Source: an uncultured Mailhella sp. (lineage in GTDB: Bacteria > Desulfobacterota > Desulfovibrionia > Desulfovibrionales > Desulfovibrionaceae). From it: a stretch of 64,000 nt of DNA. Under the pieces are notes generated by a model that searched no databases, was not told the DNA's origin, and saw nothing but the letters and a program-made list of their open reading frames with translations. Below, piece by piece: positions 14,917 through 33,924 of the stretch (its first letter is position 1; each line of letters opens with the position of its first letter). The position numbers and the translations under genes are program-made. The stretch is taken from contig NZ_OZ007001.1 of assembly GCF_963931295.1 (NCBI RefSeq), positions 1,116,001 through 1,180,000 on the forward strand, given 5' to 3'.

Positions 14917-14953
14917 AAGCACTTACATTTTTATGTAAGTGCTTGATTTTTTT
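14917..14953. terminator. Bidirectional terminator at the left attachment site
   Basis: AAGCACTTACAT (14917-14928) pairs perfectly with ATGTAAGTGCTT (14933-14944) around TTTT, with A and T runs outside. Read leftward, it follows the tRNA-Glu-like 3' end at 14953-14970, so it was probably the terminator of the original tRNA gene. Confidence 0.8.
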
Positions 14954-14970
14954 GGCGTCCCCAGGCGGAT
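14951..14970. other. Left attachment site (attL) of the mobilizable element
   Basis: TTTGGCGTCCCCAGGCGGAT occurs here and again at 33880-33899 in the same orientation. On the minus strand it reads as the T-arm, acceptor and CCA end of a tRNA (…CCGCCTGGGGACGCCA). P4-type integrases use tRNA 3' ends, and one lies inside the right repeat. Confidence 0.8.
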
Positions 14971-15227: not shown

Positions 15228-17216
15228 TCAGTCGGTGTCTCGCTGCTTCACACTGCCAAAAGCAGGCCCCTCTCCTGCAAAAAATTGCTCTACTATCTTG
15301 ACGGATTCATGCTTGGGAAATCGTGCAATAGCATTTTCCCATATTTTGAAGGCCATATCCCGATCTCCTAAATTCCAAAGACTTCCTCCAAACTCAAACC
15401 ATACTTCTGTATAATCGGGATTGATTTTTATGGCCTTTTTATATGCTTTTCTACAACCTTCTATATTTCCAAGCCCTTCATATGCCCGCGCGACCTGATA
15501 CCAGCTAAGTTCATCCGGCTGATGTATTTCAGCTTGGGGAAGCAAGATGGAAAGAGCTTCAGCATATTTTCCTAAATGATTTAAAACTACACCAAGACAA
15601 TAACCATACTCATCCGGTTCCTGTTGGCAAGCCTTTCGGTATGCGTCTTCAGCTCGTTCCCATAAACCGTCTGTCTGTGCCCAGTGACCAATGCGATCCC
15701 ATAAAAATGCAGAATCAATGGTGCCGGAATCCATCAACTCCAGCATTTCCCGCTTAAAACTTTCAAAATTTAGATCAACGGGAAAATCCTCTTCGTGAAG
15801 TAGCCATGAACATATGAGATATTCGTACTTTCCTTTTGTGTCTTCGGGAAAATCACGAAGATACTTCTTCCAAAAAAGCAATGACTTCTGAATAGATTCT
15901 ATAGATTCTTTCCCGAATTGCGACACGAACTTGCCGCACCAGGGCAATATCCACTCAAACATCCTGACATGACTCAGTAGGGTATTGATCTCCCTGAATG
16001 CTCCAGCCGAATCTTTTAAATTAAACAATATGGGGATTCGCCATGCATTCACAGATAAAGAACGCGATAATGAGTCCACATCCCAAATGATTTTATCCAA
16101 GTGTTCAAGTGCGGGCTGATACTTTCCTTCAGTGTACAGGCACACGCCCATTGCGAAATGAGCTTCAGGCAAATAGGGGTCCAGCTCTAAAGACTTTTCA
16201 TAGGATTTCCGTTCATCAGTAGAATTACCCAAGGATTTATGCACAGCTCCTATGTTTTTATAGCACATAGCAGCTTCATGCGCGTCTTCCGGAAGAGAGA
16301 ATTCTGTTATTGCCTGCAAATATGAAGACAACGCATTTTGATAGTCCTGCAATATAGAATAGGCATTTCCAATGCAGTATGTGAGATCGCCTTGTTGATG
16401 CCCCTGTTTAGAACGGAGAGCCTCAAATAAGGGGATAGCCTTTTGGACACGTTTCACATCAAACCTGTTCTCATCAATACCCAGATTTATTTCTGCCATA
16501 TAAGCCAATGCGATTGCCTCAGGATATTTACCCAACACCGCATCAAACTTGGGGAATGAGTCACTTATTTTATCGTATTGACCTGCTTTGAACATTTCGA
16601 CAAGTATTTGATATGCGCGCTGAGGCTCACCCGACAAATATATAGGACTAGAGACGGTATTAAGTATCTTATTAAGTTGCTTTGGAGATGTAGTAATACA
16701 TTGAAAGCGCTGTTCCATAAAAAATTTTCCGTCTGTCATAACCAGACTATGCAGCTTATTTTGAAAAACAACGCTAAAATATTCTTTAAATTTAATAGTT
16801 ATATATTTCTGTGTACGCCAATTCGAGCTTTTTTGTTCATACTGCTGTAAGGTGTCGTCTGCGGTTTGGACCAGAAGTCGTTTTGATGGAAGGTGATAAC
16901 AGACATAAATAGAATGAGGCTGGCGTACAAGGTAGTTCAAATTTTTTCTATCAATGGAAATACTTACACTTCCATCGGAGTTTTCTTTGCATTCTGTCCC
17001 CTTAAGCTGTACATGCACGCGAAAGTTCGTCATTGAAGCCCCGATACGAGCTTCAATCTGAATATCGGTACCATAATCATTCGTATCATTACGCTGCTGA
17101 ACAACAAACAGTCCCGCCTCTGTTATGGCATTTTCAAAAGCATTTATAGCGGCCTTTTCAATGTCATGTGCAGCGTCTCGCTGCGGCAGATCGTCTAAAT
17201 AGCTCTTTTCATCCAC
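15228..17216 (-). CDS. DUF4365-like nuclease domain fused to TPR repeats
   Basis: The product is 662 aa. Residues 1-150 resemble DUF4365: Glu20 in an opening helix, GTDIQIEARI with Asp51, and HVQLKGTE with Gln70-x-Lys72. This pattern fits the PD-(D/E)xK restriction-nuclease fold. Residues about 190-650 form TPR-like helical repeats (for example AYSILQDYQNALSSYLQAI, KSLGNSTDERKSYEKSLELD, EGLGNIEGCRKAYKKAIKIN). GTG 17216 lies two bases after the res stop, with GGGAG upstream, so it is the last gene of the restriction operon. Function as an extra effector or sensor is inferred. Its sequence is more AT-rich than res. Confidence 0.75.
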   Translation of the reverse strand: MDEKSYLDDLPQRDAAHDIEKAAINAFENAITEAGLFVVQQRNDTNDYGTDIQIEARIGASMTNFRVHVQLKGTECKENSDGSVSISIDRKNLNYLVRQPHSIYVCYHLPSKRLLVQTADDTLQQYEQKSSNWRTQKYITIKFKEYFSVVFQNKLHSLVMTDGKFFMEQRFQCITTSPKQLNKILNTVSSPIYLSGEPQRAYQILVEMFKAGQYDKISDSFPKFDAVLGKYPEAIALAYMAEINLGIDENRFDVKRVQKAIPLFEALRSKQGHQQGDLTYCIGNAYSILQDYQNALSSYLQAITEFSLPEDAHEAAMCYKNIGAVHKSLGNSTDERKSYEKSLELDPYLPEAHFAMGVCLYTEGKYQPALEHLDKIIWDVDSLSRSLSVNAWRIPILFNLKDSAGAFREINTLLSHVRMFEWILPWCGKFVSQFGKESIESIQKSLLFWKKYLRDFPEDTKGKYEYLICSWLLHEEDFPVDLNFESFKREMLELMDSGTIDSAFLWDRIGHWAQTDGLWERAEDAYRKACQQEPDEYGYCLGVVLNHLGKYAEALSILLPQAEIHQPDELSWYQVARAYEGLGNIEGCRKAYKKAIKINPDYTEVWFEFGGSLWNLGDRDMAFKIWENAIARFPKHESVKIVEQFFAGEGPAFGSVKQRDTD

Positions 17217-17218
17217 GT

Positions 17219-20200
17219 CTAAACTCCCACCCTGAACTCCTTCCAGTCCTTTGCCACCCGCAGCTCCACGCCATTATCCAATGCCTTGAAGTGTTGTCTG
17301 CCGCAGTGGATTTTCAGGGCTTCCGGGGTACGCAGGCCGAAAACGCTGGTGTCACCCTTGGTTTCCAGGACGAAGTAGAGTTTTTTCTCGCCGTCGCGAT
17401 CCAGATACACGGCCCAGTCCGGGTTGTAGGTTCCGATGGGGGTTTCAATTTTGAATGCGCGAGGGATTTTGAAAAACATTTTCACGTCAGGATCGTTGTC
17501 CAAGGCCAAAGCAAAGGGACGCTCCACAGTGCTGCTGTCGTAAATGATATGATCGTAGACGCTGTGCTCGACAGATACGGCATTCTTTTCCAGGTTGGCA
17601 ATAAGCTCTTCGCTGTCGAAAATTTCCTGAATATAATATTCCTGCCCGGCCAGTTTGAGATAGCTGATGCCGTCCACGGCCAGTTGATGGCGACGATTGC
17701 GGATAATTTCCACCGCGCGCTCGATGAACAGTTGCGGATTGTTGCGCAAGTCCTGCAAGCGTCCGCTCTGAAGCAGGATTTCGCAGACCGTAGATCGCTT
17801 GGTCAGGGTCTGTTCACCGATGACAGCCAGCACATCCGGCATGTTGCTGTAGCTGTCTTGGATATCCGTGGTCCGCATTCCCGTTTCCTGATGGCTTACC
17901 CCGGCTGACTCGATATGAATGATCGCGTTTTGCGTGACAAGCCGGGCCGAGGGTATGGGATCCATCTCCTGCAGGTCCTTGACGCACCGGCTGATCAGTA
18001 CGGCGCTGTCGATATTGACTCTGTATGTGGTTTTCTGCTTGATCTTGTTCCATAGCTCCAGAAATTCCGGAGATGCCGTGACCTGTTTCTTCAGCTTGAC
18101 CGTCACGTCTTTGGAAGCGTCGCGGAGAGGGGGACGCCTGTCCGCATTCCTGATGATGGATTCAAAGCGTTCGCGCGCCGCCTCAAATTTTTTCGGCAGA
18201 TCCAGAGTCCCAGTTTTCAGAGCATTTTTCAGGGTATCCTTGATGTTGCCGTTTTTGTCTGTGTAGCCCTTGGCGTGCAAGTGGTTCAGCAATTCCTGGG
18301 CGTCCTCATAGGAAACGGTCTTTTCCGTCTGTACGGTGCGTGTGTAGGTCGCGCCGCACAGGGCGGTTTTCAAGGCGGCGGTTGTCACCGGCGTGGCCGC
18401 GGCAGTGCTTGCCGCGGTAACCGATGTGATTGCTTTGGCGACTTCCACCGTAGCCGCAGCCACTTCCTTCGGCAAATCCAGGCTGTCTTGTTCAACGGCG
18501 GTCTGCAGCGCAGGTTGCGCCCGACCTTCGGGTGAAATGTAACCCTGTTTTTCGAGGTGCGCGACAATCTGCGCGACTTCTTCCGGGGTGATGGTCTTTT
18601 GTTCCTCAATGGTATCCGTGTACGTCATCCCGGTAAACAGGCTCAGTTGCAGAACGCCGAACTTCAGGCCGGTTTCATCCTCGATTTCCTTCTGGAGCGT
18701 GGCCGCAAATTCGGCAAAACTCTCGTTCGCCATGACGTGCAGCAGATTGATATCCTTGTCGTCAATGCGCTCGCCGTCCTGGTTCACGCACAAACGCAGG
18801 CCGCGCCCGACTTTCTGACGACAGGTGAATACAGATTTCTGCTCAATCAGCGTGCAGACTTGAAAAACGTTGGGGTTGTCCCATCCCTCTTTCAGAGCCG
18901 AATGCGAGAAAATGAAACGCAGCGGACAGTTAAAAGACAGCAGCCATTCCTTGTCTTTCATGATGGTGTTGTAGGTGCTGGTGTCGTCCTGGGTATCGCC
19001 TCTGGTGTCCTTGTAGTGGCCCTTTTTGTCCTGAGAAAAATAGCCGTCATGCACTTTTTCAACCGGATTGCGGAACCGCTCCTTAAGCTCGGCGTACTTC
19101 GGCAGATTCAAAAGTTCGTGGTAACACTCCTCGAACATTTCCGCATAAGGCCCTTTTCCGCCTTCCGGGGTGCGGTATTTTTTAACCTCGTCGATAAAGA
19201 ACAGAGAAAGTACCTTGATGCCCTTTTTCGTAAGGCGCAATTCCTTGTCAAAATGGGTCTCAATAGTGCGGCGAATCTGCGCCCGCTTGACGATGTTCTC
19301 ATCAATGCCGCCGATGGTCCGGCCTAGTTTAAGAAATTCCGTATTGCCGAATTCAACACATTCATATCCCGGTGTGCAGTCGATGCCCGCCACCGTGTAC
19401 CCTTCATAAAGCTCACGCCGACCGGAAAGGACAAACAAGTCTGAATTCGGTTTTATGGTGACGTTTTTGCGGGACACCTTACCGTCTTTAGCGGCGACGT
19501 CCATTTCCACTTTGGCCCGATAGCCCTTGTCGTCTTTGGTTACGGAAAGCAGTTTGATGTACGGCTTGTTGAATCCGTGGGCCACCTGGTTGGAAAACAC
19601 ACAGATCTGCTTCACCAGTCCCATCTGGTAGGCGTCAACCGGCGTCAGGCGAAACAGCAGATTGACTTTTTCCCGGTGGGTAGCGGAATAACGCAGCACG
19701 CAGAGCGGATTCAGCGAGGCAATAGCTTCCTTTGCCTTGGGCGTGTTGTCCACGCTCTGCGGTTCGTCAATGATCACTATGGGCCGGGTATCGCGGATAA
19801 AACGCATGGCGGATTCGCCGGAGAGCCGGTCCTGAACCTGATTGATGACGTTCTCGGCCTTTTTAAACGCGTCGATGTTGATGATCATGATTTCGATGTT
19901 GGCGCTGGTTGCGAACTGGCGCACATCGGACAAACGGGCGCTGTTGTAAATGAAATAACGGCACGGAACACGGTTGTAGAGAACGCCGAAGTGCTCCTGC
20001 GTGACTTGCAGAGATTTGTACCCCCCCTCGCGGATGGCCACGGACGGCACCACGATGATGAACTTGGCGAAGCCGAAACGCTTGTGCAGCTCAAAGATGG
20101 TTTTGGTATAGACGTAGGTTTTCCCGGTTCCCGTCTCCATTTCCACGCTGAACTGCCTGCCTTCCAGATCATGCGTCATGGGCAGGGTATTGTGTTTCTG

Positions 20201-20401
20201 CACTGCCTGCATGTTGGCGAGCATGGCGGCGTCATCAATAAGCAGGGCATTGCCGATACCGTACTGATTTTCCAGCAGGGAAAACTGTTCGCCCTGGACA
20301 ATAGAGAAGGTGGCGGTCTTCTTTTCCTGACCGATGAACAGATCAGCCACAGCATTGACGGCGGCTGTCTGGAAAGATTGTTTGATAAACTTAAGTTTCA
20401 T
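17219..20401 (-). CDS. res: Type III restriction enzyme, Res subunit
   Basis: The 1060-aa product has superfamily 2 helicase motifs: Walker A METGTGKTYVYTKTIFE, DEPQ box VIIDEPQSVDN, SAT motif LRYSATHREKV, and FIFSHSALKEGWDNPNVFQV with QKVGRGLRL (motifs V-VI). A C-terminal endonuclease domain shows NPDWAVYLD followed by LYFVLETKGD, the PD-ExK-type site. An Ala/Thr-rich linker (about residues 645-675) joins them. Res cuts DNA only in complex with Mod, using ATP. Its mod gene lies at 21760-24664 and is IS-interrupted, with an unrelated gene between them. The ribosome site before ATG 20401 is weak. Confidence 0.93.
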   Translation of the reverse strand: MKLKFIKQSFQTAAVNAVADLFIGQEKKTATFSIVQGEQFSLLENQYGIGNALLIDDAAMLANMQAVQKHNTLPMTHDLEGRQFSVEMETGTGKTYVYTKTIFELHKRFGFAKFIIVVPSVAIREGGYKSLQVTQEHFGVLYNRVPCRYFIYNSARLSDVRQFATSANIEIMIINIDAFKKAENVINQVQDRLSGESAMRFIRDTRPIVIIDEPQSVDNTPKAKEAIASLNPLCVLRYSATHREKVNLLFRLTPVDAYQMGLVKQICVFSNQVAHGFNKPYIKLLSVTKDDKGYRAKVEMDVAAKDGKVSRKNVTIKPNSDLFVLSGRRELYEGYTVAGIDCTPGYECVEFGNTEFLKLGRTIGGIDENIVKRAQIRRTIETHFDKELRLTKKGIKVLSLFFIDEVKKYRTPEGGKGPYAEMFEECYHELLNLPKYAELKERFRNPVEKVHDGYFSQDKKGHYKDTRGDTQDDTSTYNTIMKDKEWLLSFNCPLRFIFSHSALKEGWDNPNVFQVCTLIEQKSVFTCRQKVGRGLRLCVNQDGERIDDKDINLLHVMANESFAEFAATLQKEIEDETGLKFGVLQLSLFTGMTYTDTIEEQKTITPEEVAQIVAHLEKQGYISPEGRAQPALQTAVEQDSLDLPKEVAAATVEVAKAITSVTAASTAAATPVTTAALKTALCGATYTRTVQTEKTVSYEDAQELLNHLHAKGYTDKNGNIKDTLKNALKTGTLDLPKKFEAARERFESIIRNADRRPPLRDASKDVTVKLKKQVTASPEFLELWNKIKQKTTYRVNIDSAVLISRCVKDLQEMDPIPSARLVTQNAIIHIESAGVSHQETGMRTTDIQDSYSNMPDVLAVIGEQTLTKRSTVCEILLQSGRLQDLRNNPQLFIERAVEIIRNRRHQLAVDGISYLKLAGQEYYIQEIFDSEELIANLEKNAVSVEHSVYDHIIYDSSTVERPFALALDNDPDVKMFFKIPRAFKIETPIGTYNPDWAVYLDRDGEKKLYFVLETKGDTSVFGLRTPEALKIHCGRQHFKALDNGVELRVAKDWKEFRVGV

Positions 20402-20455
20402 GACAGTCTAAAATATAAATCCTTAAAGTATTAACTTAATAATTAGGTTACCTGG

Positions 20456-21688
20456 TTAGCTATGTCGACTTTTTTTACTTTTTTGCTTTTTCATAGCCAA
20501 TATAAAAAGTAAAATGTCAATACAAACCATTGATGAACATGAAAACAATAATTCAACACACCCGTTTATGTAGTCAAAATAATCGATTGTATATATTTTT
20601 TGGGGATCTTTTTTGGGTTGGTACGATATTATTTTTTTTGTTGGATCGTATTCAAATGTTGCATGATGAGAGCCGTTACGAATCGAAACATTATATTCTG
20701 AATAAATATTGATAAATTCCGGTATTCTCTCAAAGCACTTTATTCTATTTACTTTATCTATCTGTAAATAATTATCTAATGTAAAATCTTTTGTGGCGAA
20801 TGTATCATATTCTATTCCTGCTTCAATATTTTGAATAGCTGCAAAAGTAACAGCACCAGAACCAAGGACCTCAAAAGCAAATCCATAAAAGTCACGCGTC
20901 TTAGCGAAATCATATGAAGACAAAGCGCTTTTAATGAAAGGTCTATTCAACTTATAACTTATGAACAGTTGTGAATATTCAGAATAGGCATCAAAAAATC
21001 TTTCAAATATAGAATAATACTTTCTAATCCTATTTTTTACATTGCTACTATGGTAAACTAAATATTTGTCAAATTCTTCTTCATACTTTTCTGCTATTTC
21101 ATAAATTTTCTCTTTTGCATCGATGAGTAATTGAATCCTACCGTTACAAAGGGTTCTTGCGCAAAAGTCATAAATCCAGTGAAGAGCACCAGCAGCACTC
21201 TCCGGATATTGTATGCTATTTTGTTTTGATATATTGTCTGCAAGAGTAATATTATTCTTATTGAATTGAGACCAAGCCCTTTTAATTTTTGGCCACTCGT
21301 CATCAAGACGCAAGATCCTTTCTGCTTCTGACACACCTCTTTCATATTCTTTCCGATCTAATGTTACCCCTTTTTCTTTCATTTCGGCAAACAATTGCTG
21401 AGCGGCAAAAATTCCGGGACTAAAGAATGGATCATGCCTATAACTTTCTGGAATTTGGTTTTCCGAAGATAAATTTTCAATTATGCCTTCCTCCTCACAG
21501 CATTCACAATTATTAACTAAATCGAAACCAACATTAGGTGGATTCGATAAATCAAGCTTTATTTCTATCTCTTCACCACATCCAGAACAGTTAAATACAT
21601 GTTTTTGTTCTTTTGAGTGACCAATATCAATCCTCAGAGTCGAAATGGTACCACAAGTGAGGCATTTTACGTTTATTCTTTGAATCAT
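20456..21688 (-). CDS. Zinc-ribbon protein with HEPN-like RNxxxH motif, unknown function
   Basis: The 410-aa product starts MIQRINVKCLTCGTI. Cys9, Cys12, Cys34 and Cys37 form a zinc ribbon, and a further CxCC follows at 61-64. The middle is helical and charged. Near the end R337-N338-G-S-H-H342 fits the RX4-6H signature of HEPN ribonucleases with the usual polar residue after Arg, and a hydrophobic helix follows (CVELLFSCSSMVCIDILLFI). It sits between mod and res, an unusual place. It is far more AT-rich than both, which indicates separate acquisition. AGGGGA precedes the start. HEPN assignment is a motif-level inference; it could be a simple insertion-site passenger. Confidence 0.6.
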   Translation of the reverse strand: MIQRINVKCLTCGTISTLRIDIGHSKEQKHVFNCSGCGEEIEIKLDLSNPPNVGFDLVNNCECCEEEGIIENLSSENQIPESYRHDPFFSPGIFAAQQLFAEMKEKGVTLDRKEYERGVSEAERILRLDDEWPKIKRAWSQFNKNNITLADNISKQNSIQYPESAAGALHWIYDFCARTLCNGRIQLLIDAKEKIYEIAEKYEEEFDKYLVYHSSNVKNRIRKYYSIFERFFDAYSEYSQLFISYKLNRPFIKSALSSYDFAKTRDFYGFAFEVLGSGAVTFAAIQNIEAGIEYDTFATKDFTLDNYLQIDKVNRIKCFERIPEFINIYSEYNVSIRNGSHHATFEYDPTKKIISYQPKKDPQKIYTIDYFDYINGCVELLFSCSSMVCIDILLFILAMKKQKSKKSRHS

Positions 21689-23820
21689 TTACATGTCCCC
21701 TTTGCAATAGATTCCAGACGATACAGAATGTCACTATTTTTACACAATTATCAAAAAACTTAGACTAACTTCAGCTCAATATTCCTGTCACGCAGGATAT
21801 AGAAGGCGTTGGACATAGCCGTATCGTCGGCCAGGGAGTTTTCGGACAGAACGATTTGCCCCGGCGCGTACTCCGCCATTTCCTCGACCATTTCCACGGT
21901 CAGACCGTCCGACAGGCAGATAAGCAGCAGAAAATCCCCCACAGACCAGGCGGTTTTGCCGGAAATATCCACCGACGACACGTTGTACGTCAGGGGAACG
22001 CCCATCTTGAGCATGATTTCATACACTACATCCAGATCGGTCCGGTCCGGCTTTATCCGGTCGATCATATTGTGCAGCCGGTTGCTGATGGAAAGCAGAT
22101 CATCTTCCGGGAAGGGCGTGCTGTCCCAGGTTTTCAGATTGGAGGAATCCAGCTTGAAGACCTTGAAACCGGTGTCAGGCAACGGAGAATTACCTGAAGC
22201 ATCTTCACCATCAGGGACAAGCGAAAGCTGTTCCGCATGTTTTGTCATCTGTTTTTCATGCTGCTTTGCAGGTTCGATATTCTCAAGTATCTTCGCACCG
22301 GCCCGCCGAATGCGCTCCTTGCCTATTTCACAGATATTTTTGTATCCGGCCTTGAACGCTTCCGAACTTTCCGGACAAAGTTCCGGAAGCTGCACCATAA
22401 TAAAACGACGCTTGCCTCCGTCTTCTGCATTGAGCTGCATCACCGCATGGGCCGTACTTCCAGATCCAGAAAAAAAGTCCAGAATTATCGCATTCGAATC
22501 ATCACCACAAACGTAGTCAAAAAGTTTTGCAAGTTCAAAATGATCTTTGGGGTTATCGAAAAATTTTCCACCCAGCAATTTTCTAAAATATTTAATAGCG
22601 ACCTGCGATTGTTTATAGAAATAACTTCCACGTACTTGGGTCGCTAGTTCTTCTTCGTTGGATTCTTCATTAACTAAATCCAATTCATCTCCAGAATGCA
22701 CGGGGCGTATATGTGCCTTGCGGAATGGAGGATCTGTTTCATCCTTACGAAATTCGACCAATCCCAGAGAAATTTGTCGTTGCATTTCTTGAGGTGACGA
22801 GTAGATCCAGCCACGCTCAGGCACTTTGCACGCTTTACCAGTTATAGGATGAATTACATCATAGCGAGGACCTCCGCCGCCGGGCCATGAAATATCACGA
22901 TCTCGCCAAGGGCCATTTGCATCAACCCGTTTATATCGACTCCATTTTTTTGAAGGATGTTTTGCTGGTAACGACGAAAACCATTGTTGTAGTTCTTTTT
23001 CAATTGAAGCATCATCGGTGCCATATTCTTCACGAAGTTTTAAATATTTCTCCCAAATTTCTTTTGTTCCTGGTTTGTTTTCGCGCCAGATAGTCTTAAG
23101 CTCCCGGAGTCTACACAGACTCTTTGCATAAAGGAGAAGGTACTCATGACCAACTGAAAAAAGTTTGGCGTCGTTTTTTCGCCCTTTTTCCCAAACGAGA
23201 CAGGCGACAAAATTCTCTTCCCCAAAAACTTCATCACATAACTTCCGCAAGTTATGCACTTCATGGTCATCTATGGAAATAAAAATAACCCCGTCATCAC
23301 GCAACAAATTCGCCGCCAGGCGCAAGCGCGGGTACATCATGTTCAGCCAGTTGGTATGAAAGCGGCCCATGACCTCAGGGTTGCTTTTGGTGGTCTGGCT
23401 GGTCACTTCCCTGTAGCGTTCGAGCGGGTCTTTAAAATCATCCTCGTACACAAAATCGTTGCCCGTATTGTACGGCGGGTCGATGTAGATCATCTTCACC
23501 TGCCTAAAATACGAAGCCTGCAACAGCTTTAAGACTTCCAGGTTGTCGCCTTCAATATACAGATTCTGCGTGGTGTCGAAGTTGACGCTTTCTTCAGGAC
23601 ACGGACGAAGCGTTGCCGTAGAACGCTGCTGGGCCAGGCGCAGGCACTCGCTTTTCCCCTTCCAGGTAAATTCGTACTTCTCAAAATCCTTGAGGATGTA
23701 TTCGCCGCAGAGTGAAAGCAGCTTGTCGATATCCAGCTTGCCCTCCACAAAGCACTGCGGGAAAACCGAAGCCAGCTTTTCGCGCTCGGTCAGTTCAATA
23801 TTCTTGGAGAGTCCTTCTAG

Positions 23821-24651
23821 ATAGTGTCGTCAAATTATGTTTGCCCACAAAGATATGCATCTGATTTGAACGGCGGCAAGAAAAGATGCACATCTTTTGG
23901 CATATCGTGTGGCAATTCCCCGCCAGCGCTTGAGATGGAGAAAAGCATTCTCGACAAGATGCCTGACTTTGTAGAGCTCTCTGTCATAGTTGCGTGATAT
24001 TTTACGACTTCTCTTTGGCGGGATGACAACCTGGAAACCGGATTCACCTGCTTTGCGGAGAATACTCTCCGTATCGTAGCCTCTATCAGCCAAAAGTGCC
24101 CCGGCACTCAACCCGTCAATCAACGCACAGGCCTCTTTGCAATCAGCTCGGGTACCTTCTGTAACAATAACTCTGACCGGCATACCATGCGCATCCACGG
24201 CCAGGTGTATTTTTGAGTTGAGCCCCCTTTTGTGCGGCTCATGGCCTCATTACCTCCCGCAGCGCCCGCCGCATGGGGATGTACTTTGCAATGACTGGCA
24301 TCAATGATGAGCCATTCAAAATCAGGTTCGACAATGAGAGCTTCGAGTATTTTCTCCCAAACTCCCCGATCTCGCCATCGGCAGAAGCGGCGATGTGTAT
24401 TTTTCCAGTCGCCAAGATCGGGGGGTAAATCCCGCCACGGAGCCCCGGTTCTCAGTATCCAGAAGACGGTGTTGATAAACAATCGGTTATCGGCGGAAGG
24501 ACGACCGACAGAGCCTTTGGAACCGGGAAGAAGTTTTTCAATATTTGCCCATACCTTGTCGGAAATATCATGCCTCCGATGTGCCGCCATATGGTCTCTC
24601 CTCATTGTAAGTGAAGAGATTATAACATACTTTTAAATTTGACGACACTAT
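23821..24651 (-). mobile_element. IS5-family insertion sequence in mod
   Basis: The ends are 16-bp perfect inverted repeats (ATAGTGTCGTCAAATT at 23821-23836 and its complement at 24636-24651). A 4-bp CTAG is duplicated on both sides (23817-23820 and 24652-24655). The 831-bp length and two-frame transposase fit the IS427 group. It is a different element from the one at 11216-12047: the ends and the protein sequences do not match. Confidence 0.92.
23830..24605 (-). CDS. IS5-family transposase, two frames joined by -1 frameshift
   Basis: OrfA (24120-24605) starts at ATG 24605 or ATG 24590 and reads HDISDKVWANIEKLLPGSKG, RTGAPWRDLPPDLGDWKNTH and WLIIDASHCKVHPHAAGA. OrfB continues after a -1 slip in the AAAAGGGGG run (24222-24231, minus strand) with GLNSKIHLAVDAHGMPVRV, LLADRGYDTESILRKAG and YKVRHLVENAFLHLKRWRG, giving the DDE triad. 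The stop (23830) lies inside the terminal repeat. Both frames look intact. Confidence 0.88.
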
Positions 24652-24688
24652 CTAGTTTTTCCATAAAATCACCCGGTTTTCCTGAAAA

Positions 24689-27547
24689 TCATGCCGTGCC
24701 GCTTACCTGTACCACAAACAGACGTTCCATCGTTGCGGCAAGTTGCGCGTCAGCCAAAAGCTCTTGTATGTGTTCTTCGAGCTCCGTGTCCAGTTGACGG
24801 TGTTGAGCGGACAGTTGTTGTTCCGCCCGCCTCAACTCTGCGGTCAATCGGCTGCATCGGCGTTGCAGGGACAGTCGCTCCATGCGCGAAAGCTCCTTGT
24901 CCAAAGCGGCCCTGGCTGTTTTCACCTGGAAGCGTAACCCCTCAAGACGGCGCATCAGCTCGACTTTACGCTCGGCCGCCTTGTTTTTCAAAGCGTTGAC
25001 GGCCTCTTTTTCCGCTGAATCGGTTTCCGTAAGCACCTTGCGGATAAAATCATCGCCGGAAATGAGTCTGTCCAGCTTATGCTCCACGGCAGGACGCAAA
25101 TGGCGGTTACGTTTGCCCACAGGTTCGCCCCGTACAGAGAAGTCACGCACCGGTAAGGCCATGAGCGCGGCGCATTCGTCATGGGAAAGCACGCGGCCGG
25201 AACGGGTTTCCCCTGTCAGCGGATAAAAGGCATACCCGCCCCAAAAGTTCCCCTTGGGCCGAACCCGCACTTCATACAATGCAAGTTCGCACGGCTCAAT
25301 ATCCGCGTCTACAACAAGGCTCCCGCTTTCCGGAATGCCGCGCCAGAACATTTCTCCAAAGATACCTCTTGCAAGAGAACCGGTGACCGTGTGACGGCCG
25401 GAGCGCGGCTGATAGTCTTTGGCCATGCCATATTCCATGCGGCGCAACGCCTTGCCGGTGAATACCTTGGGCGGCGGAAGATGCGTAACGGCAACCGTGC
25501 GGGTTGCGTCATCCAGACGAAAGCCCTGTTTTCCTGCAAAAAACCAGCGAGTGACATACCACAGGTCGTCTTCAATCTCTTTTGTCTTGGCTTCGATATA
25601 GCGCGGGGTGATGTAAACCTTTTCCGCTATATCCCTGGTGAAGGAAGTGAACAGCGAATGTTCGGCCCGGCTTACAAGCTCTTTGTTCTGCGCTTCAAAC
25701 CGCTCCAATGTGCTTTGATGGGTCTGCTCTATCTCCTGTCTGGTCCGGGCCTTGGCGAGCATGTTGGAAAAATTGCCTTCCGAATCATTGCTGAAGTTGC
25801 CGATTACCGTATCCGACATGCCGAAGATGCCGGAAAATTGCAGAATACGTTTGTTGATCAGCTCCAGAGTACGCACATCAGCAAAATTGTTGCGGTTCAG
25901 GAAATTGAGAATGATCACGTCCGACTGCTGCCCCTGTCGGTGACAACGGTTGATGCGCTGCTCAAGGGTGAGCGTATTGTACGGCAAATCGTAGTTGATA
26001 ACAAAGGAACAGAATTCCAGATTGAAACCTTCCGCCCCGATATCCGTGGAAATGAGAATTTTCGCCTCATCCTGAAAGCGTTTCATGATGGAATACTCGC
26101 GGGTTTTCCCGCCGTGATAGGTCAGCACCCTGCCCTTGTACGGGCCGTTATCCAGCAGGGAAAACAAAAAATCCTGCGTGGCCCGGTTTTCGGTGAAGAT
26201 AAGGGCTTTCTGCTTTGCGCCCAGTTCCTTGAGCCGGGCAAAGCCCTGCTTCAAGCCTGCAAGCAGTTCTGTAGCCTTGGCATTTTGTTTGATGCAGGAG
26301 GCCAAAGTCTGCATGTGATGAAGTTCGGAAAGTTCAGCGGCAATATGCGCGCTCTTTATTTCAGCGCTGGATTCCATCCGTCGAATTACGCCGCGCAACA
26401 GTTTGTCTAAAGCAAATGTGGAGGAGGAAAAAGTGCGAAAGAACAGGAGCGCCAGATCGTACTGGTCCATGTTCGGGAATGCGACCCTGCTCCCCTTTTG
26501 CACATACCTATCAAGCAGATCATACAGTTCCTGCTCTTTGGGAGTGAGCGTGAATTCAGCGGTAATCGGAATGCGGTCCGGAATCTTGACGTAGTTCGTT
26601 ACTTCCTGTCTGGTGGTCCGAAAACAGAAGGGGCCGACTCTGTCAGCCAGTTCCGGATAGTTTTCAGGCTTGCGGAAATAACGCTCGTAAAACGCTTTTT
26701 CATCCGGAAACACCGTCTCGTCAATAACATGAATCAGACCGTACAGATCCATGATGGAGTTCTGCATGGGCGTGGCCGTAAGCAGAATCTTGAAGGCTCT
26801 GCCGACCGCGTTTTTCAAAACAGCGGCGGTCTTGTTGGTGTCCGCGTATATCCGGCGAAGATGGTGGGCTTCTTCAAAAACAACCGCGTCCCACTGCACC
26901 TTGGCGATGTATTCGACATTTTGCGCCGCAATGTCGTAGGTCGTCAGAACAATCCCATCCTGAAGAAAAGGATTGCCGTCCCCATTGTAGCTTACGTCAT
27001 GAACCGTGGCCAAGTCCAATGCAAAACAGGGAACAGAGAAACTTTTATCAATGGTCTCGCGCCATTGGTAAAGCAAGGGAGTGGGCACAACAAGCAACAG
27101 CCGGTCTTTGCCCTCATACCAAAGCTGGCTGATGATCAACAGGGCTTCATACGTTTTACCCAACGAACCCTCGTCACACAAAATAACGCCTTTCAGATAC
27201 GGTGAACGCAAGGCAAAACGCGCGGCTGCTATCTGGTAGGGATAGACTTCAATATTGGAAGACGCGAAAACAGCCGTCAGTCTGTCCTGACCAAAGGCGT
27301 AGTTTGAAAGCTTATGGGCTTTGTACAGGGCGTGAAAAGGGGACAAGGACAACTGTTTTTCCTCCTTTTCTTTTTTAGGTAAGAAAAAAGCCCTCGTCAA
27401 TTGATACCGCGCGGCGTTTTGGTCCGTTCCAAGGTAAAAACAGCCAACTTCACGCTTATGACACGTTTCCATCCAGTGTGGTGGAACCGAGGGTAAGCAT
27501 GGCAAGGTTCTGTCGATATCTTTCAATTGTGTCACGGTGATACTCAT
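24689..27547 (-). CDS. SNF2/RapA-like DNA helicase of the type III R-M cassette
   Basis: The 952-aa product has superfamily 2 Snf2-type motifs: I LCDEGSLGKTYEALL (a variant of DEMGLGKT), II VFEEAHHLRRIY, III LLTATPMQNSIMDLYGL, V LISTDIGAEGFNLEFC and VI LEQRINRCHRQGQQSDV. A long C-terminal part includes a basic coiled coil (about residues 840-930). ATG 27547 follows AGGGGA; the longer frame upstream is not used. It lies 24 bp before the native mod start, so they were one operon. Snf2 helicases accompany methylases in several phage-defence systems such as DISARM, but no other DISARM gene is here. Confidence 0.85.
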   Translation of the reverse strand: MSITVTQLKDIDRTLPCLPSVPPHWMETCHKREVGCFYLGTDQNAARYQLTRAFFLPKKEKEEKQLSLSPFHALYKAHKLSNYAFGQDRLTAVFASSNIEVYPYQIAAARFALRSPYLKGVILCDEGSLGKTYEALLIISQLWYEGKDRLLLVVPTPLLYQWRETIDKSFSVPCFALDLATVHDVSYNGDGNPFLQDGIVLTTYDIAAQNVEYIAKVQWDAVVFEEAHHLRRIYADTNKTAAVLKNAVGRAFKILLTATPMQNSIMDLYGLIHVIDETVFPDEKAFYERYFRKPENYPELADRVGPFCFRTTRQEVTNYVKIPDRIPITAEFTLTPKEQELYDLLDRYVQKGSRVAFPNMDQYDLALLFFRTFSSSTFALDKLLRGVIRRMESSAEIKSAHIAAELSELHHMQTLASCIKQNAKATELLAGLKQGFARLKELGAKQKALIFTENRATQDFLFSLLDNGPYKGRVLTYHGGKTREYSIMKRFQDEAKILISTDIGAEGFNLEFCSFVINYDLPYNTLTLEQRINRCHRQGQQSDVIILNFLNRNNFADVRTLELINKRILQFSGIFGMSDTVIGNFSNDSEGNFSNMLAKARTRQEIEQTHQSTLERFEAQNKELVSRAEHSLFTSFTRDIAEKVYITPRYIEAKTKEIEDDLWYVTRWFFAGKQGFRLDDATRTVAVTHLPPPKVFTGKALRRMEYGMAKDYQPRSGRHTVTGSLARGIFGEMFWRGIPESGSLVVDADIEPCELALYEVRVRPKGNFWGGYAFYPLTGETRSGRVLSHDECAALMALPVRDFSVRGEPVGKRNRHLRPAVEHKLDRLISGDDFIRKVLTETDSAEKEAVNALKNKAAERKVELMRRLEGLRFQVKTARAALDKELSRMERLSLQRRCSRLTAELRRAEQQLSAQHRQLDTELEEHIQELLADAQLAATMERLFVVQVSGTA

Positions 27548-27691: not shown

Positions 27692-28876
27692 TTAGCGCAT
27701 CCTCGTGCCACGGACGGTCATTGCCTGCCGATGCTCGCTGTCCCGCGAGTCCTGCTCCCGCCGCTGCAGTCCCTCTTCCTGGCGCTGAAGCTGTTCAGCA
27801 CATTTGCGCTCCACAAATTCAAGATGCAGCGGTCTGATTTCCGGCAGAAGCAAAAATTCCCGATAGCCGGCCATGATTCTCTCCATCTTCTTCAACTGAA
27901 ATTCCAGAGCCTCTTTTTCCTCATGACTTTGCTTTCTGTGTGTCGTGTATTCCGCTTCAAGGCGTGTCTGTTTTTTACGCAGCGAGTCCACTTCCCGTTT
28001 CAGGATTTCCTTCTCTGTCTGGACAAGATGCTTGACGGCAAGCGCCTTTTTCAGCTCTTCAATAATAAAGGAGGCTTTTTCCAGCACAGACGGATAATTG
28101 AAAAGTGAGGCTTTCGGCAAGGAAGAGTCTTCACGAAGGACTTTTTCCGCCTCCTCGGCCTGCCGCTCATAGGCTTCGATGCTCTTTTTCAATTCCTCTT
28201 CGCGTTGTCCCAGAATCCCAAGTGACTGCAAGGAATCACGCATCAAGGCAGCAGCTTCCTGCGCCAGCCGTGCCAGTTCCTCTTTCTGCTGTTTGAACTC
28301 GCGGGTATTCAGATGCTTTTTGGCGGAACCGGGCGTCTGCTCCACGCCTCGTTCAATGGCAAAACCTCGGCTTTGCAGATAGGCGGGAAGTTCGGATTGC
28401 AGTTTTCGCAGACTCTGACGCGTATAAATTTTGTTGGCGTTGAGTCTCCCGTCCTGCGTGACCGGCACATGGAAAAAGTGCATATGCGGCGTCTTTTCAT
28501 CCATGTGAACCATTGCGGAAACGACATTCTCCGCCCCTACAAACTCCGTAAGAAAGGCTTTGCTCTCCTCAAAGAATCGTCTGGCGTCTTCTGAAGAAAG
28601 ATTCTGAAAAAAGGCGCTGTCCGAGGTGACGATAAGCCCGCACATACGCACGGCGTCCTTTCTCACTGCTTTGGCCAACTGAAGAGCGTCAATGCGGCGC
28701 TGAATGGCCCCGGCATAGTTTGTCGACGCGGATTCGTGCAATTCGTAGTTCGCCGTACTCCTGCCGTAGTCAATATCGGGGTTGCTGTGACTCTCCCGTT
28801 CCCGCCGGTTATGGCTCTGGATGCCGCGTATGGCCTCTTTCTTGAACTTATCCATATGGAGGACGAGGTAGGACAT
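27692..28876 (-). CDS. MobV-family relaxase (Mob/Pre)
   Basis: The 394-aa product starts MSYLVLHMDKFKKEAIRGIQ, with HNRRERESHSNPDIDYGRS and the metal-binding motif MVHMDEKTPHMHFFHVPVT (three-His cluster near residue 125), all MobV/Pre hallmarks. The C-terminal 200 residues are a coiled coil rich in Glu, Lys and Arg. MobV relaxases nick oriT and lead single-strand transfer of small mobilizable plasmids and elements. ATG 28876 has AAGGAAG upstream; the longer frame is rejected. The candidate oriT lies directly upstream (29023-29066). Confidence 0.9.
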   Translation of the reverse strand: MSYLVLHMDKFKKEAIRGIQSHNRRERESHSNPDIDYGRSTANYELHESASTNYAGAIQRRIDALQLAKAVRKDAVRMCGLIVTSDSAFFQNLSSEDARRFFEESKAFLTEFVGAENVVSAMVHMDEKTPHMHFFHVPVTQDGRLNANKIYTRQSLRKLQSELPAYLQSRGFAIERGVEQTPGSAKKHLNTREFKQQKEELARLAQEAAALMRDSLQSLGILGQREEELKKSIEAYERQAEEAEKVLREDSSLPKASLFNYPSVLEKASFIIEELKKALAVKHLVQTEKEILKREVDSLRKKQTRLEAEYTTHRKQSHEEKEALEFQLKKMERIMAGYREFLLLPEIRPLHLEFVERKCAEQLQRQEEGLQRREQDSRDSEHRQAMTVRGTRMR

Positions 28877-29022
28877 GATGAAACTTCCTTGTATCCATGA
28901 CTGCACCATTTCTGATGCGGCAGAAAAGCGGTACACTTTTCCCGTTCAAACGGTACAAAAGGGGATGACGTATTCGGACCTGACCGGACATCACCGGATA
29001 ACTGACGGATCGAATATTGCGA

Positions 29023-29066: not shown

Positions 29067-29082
29067 CTGATCATATGAGCCT

Positions 29083-29853
29083 TCAGAAATGTTCCTCCAA
29101 TTTCTTTTTCAGTCTCTGGATGGCCCCTTTGGATTTCCCCATTTCCTCTGCGCAGTCGCGGATGCTGTAGCCTTCTTTTAAAAGTCGTCTCAAGCTTTCC
29201 AGTTCAACGTCTTCCAGCTCTCTGACCTGCCAGTGGAGCGCATTACCTTCGGTAACAAGATTGGCCTCAAATGGTTTGGCGTCATCACCCAATATGCCCC
29301 GTGCCTTGGTCAGGTGGACCTCAAAACGTGCTCCTTCGGCCATACTGTATTCCCTGGGTCTGCGCAGGCTGATCACCGTGTCCATAATATCTTCCCTGGC
29401 GCTGGTGCCACGCTGGTCGCCGGATTTTCCGGCATGATGGATAAGCAGGAAGGTCATACCCCTGCGGCGCAACTCCAGCAGCCATGCCTGCATGGTCTGC
29501 CAGGACTGCGATTCATTTTCCTTGCCGGTGCGGCACAAGGTAGCAATGTTGTCCAGCACCACCATGTCCACACCTTGCAGAAAAGGCTCAATCATGCCCT
29601 GCCCACCGGCGGTGGACAAATCCGGCATGGGACAAGGTTGCAGGTCCGGTGTGATGAGCGCCATGTTTTTCAACGTATGCGGAGGAACGGACATACCGCT
29701 GACAAGCGCTGCAAGACGACTCTGCATGGATGTGGCAGGCATTTCCCCATCCACATACAGCGTTCGTTTAGGCATCGGCGCACGCCAGTTGAACACCGCA
29801 CCGCCGGAAGCCACGGCAACGGCTAAACGTCTTGCCGATGCCGCGCGGAGCAT
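29083..29853 (-). CDS. RepA-like hexameric helicase part (downstream of frameshift)
   Basis: This frame encodes a RecA-fold ATPase: LYVDGEMPATSMQSRLAAL (Walker A′ region), MVVLDNIATLCRTGKENESQ (Walker B), FLLIHHAGKSGDQRGTSARE and DTVISLRRPREY, as in RSF1010 RepA and AAA_25 proteins. A C-terminal helix-turn-helix-like tail (YSIRDCAEEMGKSKGAIQRL) follows. The Walker A (LYAPRGIGKT) is encoded in the other frame by the preceding primase ORF, and the two join at 'aag acg ttt agcc' near 29822. So this is the second half of one primase-helicase gene with a one-base insertion, or a frameshift-translated pair. Confidence 0.75.
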   Translation of the reverse strand: MLRAASARRLAVAVASGGAVFNWRAPMPKRTLYVDGEMPATSMQSRLAALVSGMSVPPHTLKNMALITPDLQPCPMPDLSTAGGQGMIEPFLQGVDMVVLDNIATLCRTGKENESQSWQTMQAWLLELRRRGMTFLLIHHAGKSGDQRGTSAREDIMDTVISLRRPREYSMAEGARFEVHLTKARGILGDDAKPFEANLVTEGNALHWQVRELEDVELESLRRLLKEGYSIRDCAEEMGKSKGAIQRLKKKLEEHF

Positions 29854-30856
29854 ACAGGATGCCTATCCCTTGAACCGGAAGAATGGGGGATAAAAGATAC
29901 CCCCGTTCAGGTATGGACATGGAAAGAAACTCCCCCATGTCCAGAGAAATCAGAGACGGACGGGCAGCTGTATGCATGGCCTCTTCCACCTGACGGAGAA
30001 CTTCCTCCAGCCCCTCACTCTGATGCAGGTCGTTGAAGTCTTTCCCCTCGCCGGTGGTAAACTTGGGCAGGACCAATCGAGTCTGTGCTGCTTGAGCAGC
30101 TTCCTGCCCTTTACTGCGGCCTGCTTCATCATTGTCACCACAAATAAGGATGGAAGCCTCCGGGAATCTGTGTCTCACAAGATTGGCCACGACAGGCAGA
30201 TTATTGGCTGAGAACGTCACATATACGGTGCAGTTGACGGCTAGATGGATGCTTGCTCCCGTAGCATAACCTTCGCAAAGGGCTAGAGGCTTTTCCGACT
30301 TGCCGGGAATAATGAAATGTCCTCCCTGTACTTTGCCGCCCGTGAGAAAACGCTTTGTCCCGTCCGGGGCGATATATTGCAGGCTTTGTAAGGTTCCCGA
30401 TATATCCCTGACTGGAAGGAGCAGCAGACCGCTCCGGGTCTGACGCATATCACCAAGCGCGGGAACGCCTTTACGCCGTAAATATGTGTGTTCCGACGAG
30501 CAGGGAAAAGATGCATCCAAGACGCCCTGGGCCTGTTTTGCCGCTGCTTCATACCGGCGGGCACATTCTTCCTCTCGTTGATGACGAATGTTGTGTTGCC
30601 GTTTCTGCCATGCTTCCTTTTCAGCCGGGGAGAACGTTCTCTGATCCATTTCAGTAAACGTCCCCTGGTCTCCGCTCTCCCAGTTGCACCACCAGAGCGT
30701 GGCAGGAGGGTCAACATGCGCGATGTATGCGCCGTTCTGTTTATGCGGCCTGGTCTGCGTGGGACAACGATGCAGTTTTCCGTCCGCTTCGATGTCAGAC
30801 GGAATCAAGCCCTTGTCGGTCAGGATGTCCCGAAAATTTTGCAGGGGATTACTCAT
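29768..30856 (-). CDS. Toprim primase part of a primase-helicase (upstream of frameshift)
   Basis: ATG 30856 begins MSNPLQNFRDILTDKGLIPS. A CHC2-like N-terminal zone (RCPTQTRPHKQNGAYIAHVD, WWCNWESGD) is followed by a Toprim domain with KPLALCEGYATGASIHLA (catalytic Glu) and ILICGDNDEAGRS (DxD region). The frame then reaches GIGILYAPRGIGKT, the Walker A of the helicase, and goes out of frame into a 19-residue tail before stopping at 29768. Proteins of this type prime and unwind DNA for replication of mobilizable elements. The start overlaps the alpA stop by 8 bp. Confidence 0.8.
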   Translation of the reverse strand: MSNPLQNFRDILTDKGLIPSDIEADGKLHRCPTQTRPHKQNGAYIAHVDPPATLWWCNWESGDQGTFTEMDQRTFSPAEKEAWQKRQHNIRHQREEECARRYEAAAKQAQGVLDASFPCSSEHTYLRRKGVPALGDMRQTRSGLLLLPVRDISGTLQSLQYIAPDGTKRFLTGGKVQGGHFIIPGKSEKPLALCEGYATGASIHLAVNCTVYVTFSANNLPVVANLVRHRFPEASILICGDNDEAGRSKGQEAAQAAQTRLVLPKFTTGEGKDFNDLHQSEGLEEVLRQVEEAMHTAARPSLISLDMGEFLSMSIPERGYLLSPILPVQGIGILYAPRGIGKTFSRCRGFRRCGVQLACADA

Positions 30857-31067
30857 GCTCTTCCCCCTGCCTGCCAAGACTTTCGATGAACGCGGCAATA
30901 TCTTCTGCTCTCCAGACCGTGGTTCTGGGACCAAGTTTCACGGGTTTGGGATAACGCCCGGTCCGACAGCCTTCCCACCATGCGCTCTTGCTTATGGGAA
31001 TCATGCTGAGAACCTGAGGAAGACGCAAAAGGCCGTGGGCGGGGATGGACGGTTGGTGCTGTTTCAT
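30849..31067 (-). CDS. AlpA-family transcriptional regulator
   Basis: The 72-aa product starts MKQHQPSIPAHGLLRLPQVL. It has the AlpA/MerR-like winged helix pattern: LPQVLSMIPISKSAWWEGCR, GRYPKPVKLGPRTTVWRAED, then IAAFIESL. AlpA-type proteins control excision or replication genes of P4-like elements. It is first in an operon with primase and helicase. A hairpin followed by T7 sits exactly between ribosome site and start, suggesting control at the RNA level. Confidence 0.85.
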   Translation of the reverse strand: MKQHQPSIPAHGLLRLPQVLSMIPISKSAWWEGCRTGRYPKPVKLGPRTTVWRAEDIAAFIESLGRQGEEHE

Positions 31068-31102: not shown

Positions 31103-31121
31103 ACTCTGGCACACGTCCAAA

Positions 31122-32266: not shown

Positions 32267-32434
32267 TCAGCTATACCATACCCGGATGATATCCATGTCG
32301 TCATAGCCGTATTGTCTCATACGGTCCTTGTCTTCTTCGCTCCAGCCAGTGTCGTTTTCCGTCACCTGCGTTTCATCCTCTGTTTTCCCGATAACGATAC
32401 AGACATTCCGTTCTGTCATGGCGTTCTCTTTCAT
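32267..32434 (-). CDS. Small acidic protein coupled to the integrase
   Basis: The 55-aa product starts MKENAMTERNVCIVIGKTED and ends DDMDIIRVWYS. Its ATG overlaps the integrase stop (ATGA), with GGAG upstream, so it is translated together with the integrase. It is strongly acidic. No family recognised; an excisionase or a recombination modulator is possible only from position. Confidence 0.6.
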   Translation of the reverse strand: MKENAMTERNVCIVIGKTEDETQVTENDTGWSEEDKDRMRQYGYDDMDIIRVWYS

Positions 32435-33642: not shown

Positions 33643-33719
33643 GGGTACTCCCTGGCTGTCGTTGGACGAAGGGATACCCACATGGATAAAAATATTTTTG
33701 ATTCCGCGCGGTTATTCAT

Positions 33720-33879: not shown

Positions 33880-33924
33880 TTTGGCGTCCCCAGGCGGATT
33901 TGAACCGCCGTTGACGGCGTGAAA
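33880..33924 (-). tRNA. tRNA-Glu 3' fragment: shared attachment site of two elements (attR/attL)
   Basis: Positions 33882-33924 on the minus strand read TTTCACGCCGTC, then AACGGCGGTTCAAATCC and GCCTGGGGACGCCA. These are the anticodon loop (TTC, Glu), T arm and acceptor end of tRNA-Glu. The 5' half of a tRNA is absent: sequence beyond 33925 does not fold with it, and the anticodon stem-loop is one base short. It is therefore a relic and not a working tRNA. The first 20 bp repeat at 14951-14970. It fits a junction between two tandem integrations, with the complete tRNA expected beyond the right end of the window. Confidence 0.7.

What the first reader, a model, noticed from the sequence alone, without database searches (positions are those of the whole stretch)
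15228..27547. Five-gene type III restriction cassette with a helicase and two unusual partners
The sequence shows one minus-strand run: Snf2-like helicase (24689-27547), type III mod (21760-24664), a zinc-ribbon/HEPN-like protein (20456-21688), res (17219-20401), and a DUF4365-TPR fusion (15228-17216). Gaps are short: 24 bp, about 70 bp, 54 bp and 2 bp. Classical type III systems consist of mod and res only. A helicase before mod and a nuclease-TPR gene coupled to res suggest a composite anti-phage system with several effectors. The grouping as one functional unit is inference.
Basis: partly seen in the sequence, partly recalled or inferred. Interest (0 to 1): 0.78.

Follow-up and report, generated by a model that had tools for sequence, protein, structure and literature searches.

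The report
Restriction operon with swappable defence genes
This is a mobile anti-virus operon, a helicase plus a DNA-modifying and a DNA-cutting gene, of a kind that recurs in many bacteria and often carries exchangeable extra defence genes at fixed places; the two extras found here are not part of a conserved five-gene system, and in this strain the modifying gene has been broken by a jumping gene.

Summary
Helicase-mod-res is a real, recurrent unit: 27 of 30 informative helicase places fetched from 348 class and 395 phylum genomes have mod behind the helicase. That unit is already in print (PMC8259958). The two "unusual partners" are not conserved parts: relatives of gene 3 (zinc ribbon + HEPN-like) lie beside no detected mod/res/helicase in 13 of 13 contexts opened; relatives of DUF4365-TPR lie beside no type III genes in 7 of 7, and beside a type I operon in 1 of 7. 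Instead the trio is a chassis with slots for interchangeable cargo, in 18 of 24 complete loci: RhuM, Fic, HEC-01, GmrSD, Schlafen, a KwaA-KwaB pair. The nearest chassis visible through to res (Hel 77%, Res 78%) holds RhuM where the window holds gene 3, homology ending at gene borders. All sits on an ~18.9-kb integrative mobilizable element. Best reading: a new variant of a known kind. Cargo function is inferred, not shown.

The parts
14951..14970 (.). left end repeat of the mobile element (20 bp, identical to 33880-33899)
   Evidence: sequence read
15228..17216 (-). cargo: DUF4365 (PD-(D/E)XK-like nuclease domain, family knowledge) fused to TPRs; GTG start 2 bp after the res stop
   Evidence: D50, Q69 and K71 invariant in 7 aligned homologues
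17219..20401 (-). res: type III restriction subunit, intact frame
20456..21688 (-). cargo: zinc ribbon + HEPN-like protein, in the slot between mod and res
21760..23819 (-). mod: main part of the type III methyltransferase, downstream of the IS (frame from GTG at 23748)
23820..24652 (-). insertion sequence inside mod (833 bp, 17-bp terminal repeats, TA on both sides; DUF4096 + DDE_Tnp_1 frames)
   Evidence: one full copy in the genome
24653..24664 (-). first four codons of mod, cut off by the IS
24689..27547 (-). SNF2-family (RapA/DrmD-like) helicase, first gene of the chassis
27692..28936 (-). Mob_Pre relaxase of the carrier element
29083..29853 (-). AAA_25 protein (RepA-like ATPase, name recalled)
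29768..30934 (-). Toprim_3 protein (primase-like)
32431..33681 (-). tyrosine integrase (PRK09692-like, below the curated cut-off)
33880..33899 (.). right end repeat of the element, at the edge of a tRNA-like 3' fragment (tRNA likeness judged by eye)

Best explanation
A helicase-mod-res type III restriction operon (a chassis also seen in E. coli, other proteobacteria and a Clostridia plasmid) carried by an ~18.9-kb integrative mobilizable element. It has loaded two unrelated defence-like genes as cargo: a zinc-ribbon/HEPN-like putative RNase in the slot between mod and res, and a DUF4365-TPR putative nuclease behind res. Intended working, inferred from families: Mod marks self DNA; Mod2Res cuts unmarked incoming DNA; the SNF2 ATPase assists or monitors on DNA in an unknown way; the cargo proteins are autonomous second-line effectors (RNA and DNA cleavage) that are spread, and probably transcribed, with the operon. 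Shown: gene order, homology, recurrence of the trio, different cargo between homologous chassis with gene-precise borders, relatives of both cargo genes living without a detected type III operon, the IS in mod. Inferred: operon transcription, nuclease activities, cargo autonomy, and that restriction is off or weak in this strain.
For: Recurrence: 12 of 13 informative class places and 15 of 17 informative phylum places have mod behind the helicase. Slots: 18 of 24 complete loci carry at least one extra same-strand ORF of 120 aa or more between helicase and mod or between mod and res, mostly of known defence families: by Pfam/PADLOC scan RhuM/PDC-S05, Fic/SoFic, HEC-01A+B, GmrSD, Schlafen, PDC-S01, KwaA+KwaB, and by BLAST to these in L091, L095-L099 and L164. 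Swap: window against L027/L028, Hel 77% and Res 78% identical, res DNA homology 17221-20402 and mod homology from 21760, no blastn match between; RhuM there, gene 3 here. Similarly L095 (Fic) against L096 (RhuM): Hel 74%, Res 72%. Autonomy: gene 3 relatives without a detected chassis in 13 of 13 contexts opened, DUF4365-TPR relatives without type III genes in 7 of 7. HEPN: invariant RNxSHH and Csm6 as best structural match, Z 7.8, 130 aligned residues, rmsd 3.7. Element: 20-bp end repeats, integrase, Mob_Pre; DNA 98% identical over the helicase and the 3' end of Mob_Pre in another genus (L013).
Against: No function was measured. The Csm6 match stays below the Z 8 (helical folds: about 13) that the tool asks for, and Foldseek gave nothing at E <= 0.001. 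Sampled loci are partly related (for example L145/L146 Res 94%, L155/L158 91%), so the counts are not independent events. 6 of 24 complete loci carry no cargo; 2 of 6 plasmid chassis and 2 of 5 E. coli chassis opened carry none; of 6 plasmid loci of the second helicase type, 5 carry none beyond DUF4391. 3 of 30 informative helicase places lack mod (L031, L101, L103). The reference copy L027/L028 is itself damaged (split RhuM and res, stops in helicase and mod). Some flanks around gene 3 and DUF4365-TPR relatives are short or one-sided. Cargo might instead be regulated by the restriction complex, as PrrC is by EcoPrrI (PMC3710099), rather than autonomous.
Confidence: 0.68

Rival explanations
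1. PrrC-like guard: the HEPN-like protein (and perhaps DUF4365-TPR) is held inactive by the Mod-Res complex and released when a phage disables restriction, so the cargo is a functional partner of the RM enzyme.
For: PrrC, a HEPN ribonuclease inside the EcoPrrI operon, works this way, and at least 16 HEPN clades are linked to R-M neighbourhoods (PMC3710099, passages read). Cargo lies inside the operon and on the same strand. A weak contrast: cargo between mod and res in 24 of 40 loci with a helicase against 1 of 7 where none was detected (Fisher p 0.04, relatedness not corrected; with the window's helicase type alone 14 of 24, p 0.08).
Against: Gene 3 relatives occur without a detected RM partner (13 of 13 contexts opened). 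The same slot accepts unrelated families (RhuM, Fic, HEC-01), which argues against one specific contact surface. The IS in mod has not been lethal here, though downstream silencing or a leftover Mod from GTG 23748 could explain that.
Confidence: 0.2
2. A dedicated five-gene composite system.
For: Short gaps and one strand; GTG of the last gene 2 bp after the res stop.
Against: No second locus with gene 3 or DUF4365-TPR next to helicase/mod/res in the searches made and the contexts opened. The nearest homologous chassis visible through to res (L027/L028) has RhuM in the slot and no DUF4365-TPR match behind res.
Confidence: 0.05
3. A decaying island: the genes are together only by accretion, mod is dead, and nothing here works as a defence in this strain.
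For: IS in mod. The related copies in G372 have stops in the helicase, and L027 has split RhuM and res frames. The same-species genome G538 has only part of a Mob_Pre with other genes behind it. IS1 also sits inside this type of operon in E. coli L167 and L168.
Against: Res, gene 3, DUF4365-TPR and the helicase keep full open frames and conserved motifs; the IS is a single full copy, which would fit a recent event.
Confidence: 0.2

Closest known systems
Type III R-M systems with an extra helicase-like ATPase (Eco86II, BspHIV; PMC8259958)
   Same: SF2-helicase-like ATPase gene 5' of mod, then res; reported in more than 500 genomes (passages and section 17 read)
   Different: The passages and the section I read speak of no interchangeable cargo between the genes; the window's mod is IS-broken. 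Sequence identity of the window's helicase to the Eco86II one was not tested.
PrrC within EcoPrrI and other HEPN, RhuM and Doc genes in R-M loci (PMC3710099)
   Same: A HEPN-type candidate RNase gene inside a restriction operon; the passages read already note RhuM-like genes in the position of the Doc toxin in R-M neighbourhoods
   Different: PrrC sits in a type I operon and has an ABC ATPase domain; gene 3 has a zinc ribbon, no ATPase domain found, and sits in a type III operon. The paper's two 'type III' passages were not shown to me.
DISARM DrmD helicase
   Same: Best NCBIfam hit of the helicase (NF038318, E 5.6e-116)
   Different: 388.7 bits against a cut-off of 950; the genes that follow are type III mod and res
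Helicase-DUF4391-mod-res operons
   Same: Same order with another helicase (about 1,060-1,090 aa), often with cargo in the class genomes (12 of 17)
   Different: An extra DUF4391 gene stands between helicase and mod; 5 of 6 plasmid examples opened carry no further cargo

Membership tests
Type III R-M system | Beta-class Mod with DPPY and FxGxG motifs (motif names recalled) | tested here: met
   MTase_III E 1.1e-187; DPPYN and FSGSGS read in the translation
Type III R-M system | Res with Walker A, SF2 ATPase and C-terminal PD-(D/E)XK nuclease | tested here: met
   REase_III 1018 bits; RE_endonuc 944-1049; TGTGKT and PD...ETK read in the translation
Type III R-M system | Intact, expressed mod | tested here: not met
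   833-bp IS after codon 4; expression from GTG 23748 not testable. So: a broken member in this strain
Helicase-type III variant (Eco86II/BspHIV) | Helicase-like ATPase 5' of mod | tested here: met
   24 bp from the mod ATG; order recurs in 27 of 30 informative places
Helicase-type III variant (Eco86II/BspHIV) | Helicase homologous to the published ones | not tested
   the Eco86II and BspHIV sequences were not fetched
DISARM | DrmD above the curated score | tested here: not met
   388.7 against 950 bits
DISARM | drmA, drmB and drmC beside it | tested here: not met
   no Drm hit in the other 9 proteins scanned with PADLOC, 15228-32181; further ORFs not scanned
HEPN superfamily (gene 3) | Rx4-6H motif | tested here: met
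   R336...H341 invariant in 11 aligned sequences; motif definition from PMC3710099
HEPN superfamily (gene 3) | HEPN fold | tested here: inconclusive
   Csm6 first at Z 7.8, second Csm6 Z 4.9, RnlA Z 3.7; below the tool's caution level; model pLDDT 81.8
HEPN superfamily (gene 3) | RNase activity | not testable with these tools
   needs biochemistry
DUF4365 nuclease with TPRs | DUF4365 domain with conserved acidic and QxK residues | tested here: met
   Pfam E 5.9e-16; D50, Q69, K71 invariant in 7 sequences
PrrC-like guarded effector | Held inactive by the R-M complex | not testable with these tools
   needs genetics

The most novel reading that the evidence does not exclude
The SNF2 helicase-mod-res trio is a general carrier platform for anti-phage genes: two internal slots plus a place behind res accept whole defence systems (here a ZnR-HEPN gene and DUF4365-TPR; elsewhere a KwaA-KwaB pair, HEC-01, GmrSD, Fic, RhuM) with gene-precise borders. 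The helicase, whose role is unknown, may serve as the common link that arms or restrains whatever cargo is loaded.
Probability: 0.25. Interest if true: 0.8.

Novelty: new variant of a known kind. Interest (0 to 1): 0.55.

Why it matters
The helicase found in hundreds of type III operons has no known role (PMC8259958). A pattern in which these operons carry swappable defence genes would suggest a testable role for it, point to unrecognised effectors by position alone (gene 3, DUF4365-TPR, the 435- and 527-aa unknowns in L033 and L046), and let chassis with and without cargo be compared within one species such as E. coli (L165 against L169 and L170).

Tried and rejected
Rejected: a five-gene conserved system. 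DISARM. A mod without defect. Chance neighbourhood of helicase and mod.

Led nowhere or weak: single-sequence fold of gene 3 (pLDDT 38.9). Foldseek search of the good model, no hit at E <= 0.001. PDB sequence search with the gene 3 alignment, best E 0.053. DUF4365-TPR in viral contigs and phages, no match. Rfam on 13500-36000 at gathering score, no match. Promoter and terminator scan: 23 promoter-like sites against 15.9 (sd 4.0) expected, 11 terminator-like against 14.7 (sd 3.5), uninformative. Helicase against no helicase: my first comparison (30 of 40 against 1 of 7, p 0.004) was unfair, because the slot before mod is counted only where a helicase is seen; restricted to the mod-res slot it is 24 of 40 against 1 of 7, p 0.04. 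Ten paper searches: 69 and 116 gave no paper; 131 was swamped by unrelated papers and is no test; 'not seen in print' rests on listings and passages only.

Rows dropped or unclear: L040 and L100 (contig ends at or near the helicase) left out of the 30 informative places; G698 (partial helicase at a contig edge) not fetched; the piece G372:C51 not fetched; L141 and L147 have no visible mod/res pair; L150 unclear and not counted; L149 counted as without cargo although its 203-aa ORF before mod matched no DUF4391 query; L138 and L163 left out of the no-helicase group because the contig starts or ends beside mod (L163 has a DUF1016-like ORF between mod and res). A divergent helicase could be missed by BLAST in L139, L151, L154 and L162. 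L063 (P1-like plasmid, no helicase detected, no cargo) was not in the counts. L090's cargo is a 141-aa DUF1016_N fragment, counted as cargo. L104's helicase lacks its 5' part. For L027 the helicase lies in the neighbouring locus L028. Not opened: H2; 12 of 17 records; 637 of 643; 2 of 3 E. coli genomes; 237 of 243 (most of whose matches cover only 10-30% of the query); of 54 records, 7 were opened and 3 more are the records of L041, L042 and L045. In alignment A3 the rows L057 and L058 begin outside the gene, so their N-terminal columns mean nothing. An earlier count said 0 of 14 for gene 3 and 'without helicase' for L064; the opened contexts are 13, and one search finds a helicase match before mod in L064.

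Full report
WHAT IS THERE. Family searches confirm an SNF2/DrmD-like helicase, a type III Mod, a type III Res and a DUF4365-TPR fusion; gene 3 (20456-21688) matches no family in Pfam, NCBIfam or PADLOC. One correction: mod (24664 to 21760) is interrupted after codon 4 by an 833-bp insertion sequence at 23820-24652, with 17-bp perfect terminal repeats and TA on both sides. Its frames hit DUF4096 and DDE_Tnp_1, and it is the only full copy in the genome. A mod with an uninterrupted start, 92% identical in protein where visible, exists in another genus (L013, cut by its contig end).

SURROUNDINGS. A 20-bp direct repeat stands at 14951-14970 and 33880-33899. Between the repeats, ahead of the cassette, lie an integrase, a Toprim_3 protein, an AAA_25 protein and a Mob_Pre relaxase. 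I read this as an integrative mobilizable element of about 18.9 kb. The right repeat borders a sequence that looks to me like the 3' half of a tRNA gene; ARAGORN calls none. The same-species genome G538 holds the end of a similar Mob_Pre (75%) followed by different genes, one ATPase-like. In G372, another genus, the helicase and the adjoining 3' end of Mob_Pre are 98% identical in DNA.

DOES THE TRIO RECUR? Class search: 13 of 348 genomes, 15 places. Of the 14 places outside the window one contig is too short (L040); 12 of the other 13 have mod behind the helicase, 10 of them visible as far as res. Phylum search: 18 of 395 genomes, the window's included. Of 18 places fetched (one more was not), one contig ends just after the helicase (L100); 15 of the other 17 have mod, 13 of them as far as res. 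Exceptions: L031, L101 (an ISL3-type transposase and CRISPR genes follow) and L103. Six of six plasmid contexts opened, out of 643 records matched, show helicase, mod and res. In E. coli, 243 of 5426 genomes have a helicase match, mostly over 10-30% of the query; of six opened, five have the trio and one (L168) lacks mod and res. PMC8259958 (passages, and its section 17 in full) already reports this kind of helicase-like gene 5' of mod in more than 500 genomes, not required for methylation and not found in partially purified Eco86II. So this part is known.

DO THE TWO PARTNERS RECUR? Gene 3: own genome only, 1 of 297 phylum genomes; 4 plasmid records (three opened) and 10 genome loci. None of these 13 contexts holds a BLAST-detectable helicase, mod or res; in one (L011) gene 3 overlaps the ATPase gene of an ABC-3C locus. 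Some flanks are short. DUF4365-TPR: 2 of 348 class genomes, one being the window's, and 17 plasmid records. Of 7 contexts opened (5 plasmids, 1 E. coli, L048) none shows type III genes; L048 has HsdM-HsdS-Fic-HsdR-[DUF4365-TPR]. So both appear as free-standing genes, and DUF4365-TPR lies behind the restriction gene of a type I operon once.

THE SLOTS. Among 24 complete loci with this helicase type (10 class, 13 phylum, plus L164 from the mod search), 18 carry at least one extra same-strand ORF of 120 aa or more between helicase and mod or between mod and res. Identified by Pfam or PADLOC: RhuM (L027, L029, L037), Fic (L034), HEC-01A with DUF4276 (L030; also L102, cut in mod), GmrSD with others (L088), Schlafen (L092), a PD-T4-4_A-like ATPase (L094), PDC-S01 (L104), DUF1016_N (L090), and KwaA + KwaB between helicase and mod (L097). 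By BLAST to these: Fic (L091, L095, L098, L099), RhuM (L096, and weaker in L097), HEC-01 (L164). L033 has an unknown 435-aa protein before mod and PDC-S06 behind res. Plasmids: 4 of 6 with cargo. E. coli: 3 of 5, with Abi or with AAA + S8 peptidase. A second chassis type (another helicase plus DUF4391) carries further cargo in 12 of 17 class loci, none in 4, unclear in 1, but in only 1 of 6 plasmid loci. Where no helicase was detected, 1 of 7 loci has cargo between mod and res, against 24 of 40 with a helicase (p 0.04; related loci not corrected for).

SWAP. Window against L027/L028 (G372): helicase 77% and Res 78% identical. DNA homology covers res and, from its stop codon, mod; between them, gene 3 here and RhuM there, blastn finds none; behind res the homology ends at the stop codon. 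That copy is damaged itself. The middle of mod (about 22488-23204, presumably target recognition) differs too. L095 (Fic) against L096 (RhuM), and L144 against L145, repeat the pattern. In E. coli L167 and L169, helicase and res are about 97% identical in DNA while the Abi slot and the middle of mod diverge.

GENE 3. CxxC...CxxC is present in the 9 aligned rows that reach the N-terminus; R336, N337, S339, H340 and H341 are invariant in 11 sequences. The model from 11 sequences (pLDDT 81.8) matches Csm6 best (Z 7.8, 130 residues, rmsd 3.7); residues 3-65 match chains of spliceosome entries (Z 5.0-6.2). This suggests, but does not prove, a zinc ribbon joined to a HEPN RNase. DUF4365-TPR keeps D50, Q69 and K71.

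MECHANISM. Best supported: a type III chassis that restricts unmarked DNA, with autonomous effectors loaded as second-line defence. Rivals are a PrrC-like guard relation (PMC3710099, passages) and plain decay. The IS makes it likely that this copy restricts poorly or not at all; a Mod started at GTG 23748 cannot be excluded.

VERDICT. Observation partly confirmed, interpretation partly supported. The helicase-type III unit is known; RhuM and Doc genes in R-M loci are known. Interchangeable cargo slots in helicase-type III operons appear in none of the listings and passages I saw in ten searches, which is a limited test. New variant of a known kind.

Noticed in passing
L097:4804-6295: A KwaA + KwaB pair (Kiwa) lies between the helicase and mod of a type III operon, with a RhuM-like gene between mod and res.
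   Followed up: partly
window 22488-23204; L167/L169: The middle of mod, presumably the target-recognition part, finds no DNA match between otherwise similar chassis, like the cargo.
   Followed up: partly
L182 (G538, same species): A partial related element: a 75% similar Mob_Pre end followed by three other genes, one ATPase-like, instead of the restriction cassette.
   Followed up: partly
window 24689-27547: The window's helicase and its 77% relative have unusual motifs (GSLGKT; EEAH instead of DEAH); the Clostridia one (L041) has EEAN; the other 8 aligned have GLGKT and DEAH.
   Followed up: no
L170:14388-17765: In E. coli FDAARGOS_401 an AAA ATPase and an S8 family peptidase stand between helicase and mod.
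   Followed up: no
L048:2010-14590: Type I operon with Fic between HsdS and HsdR and DUF4365-TPR plus PDC-S28 behind HsdR: similar cargo positions in a type I system.
   Followed up: partly
window 33880-33948: tRNA-like 3' fragment at the right end of the element; pieces of it recur several times in related genomes.
   Followed up: no
window 14917-14944: A 12-pair hairpin just outside the left end repeat, terminator-like in both directions.
   Followed up: no
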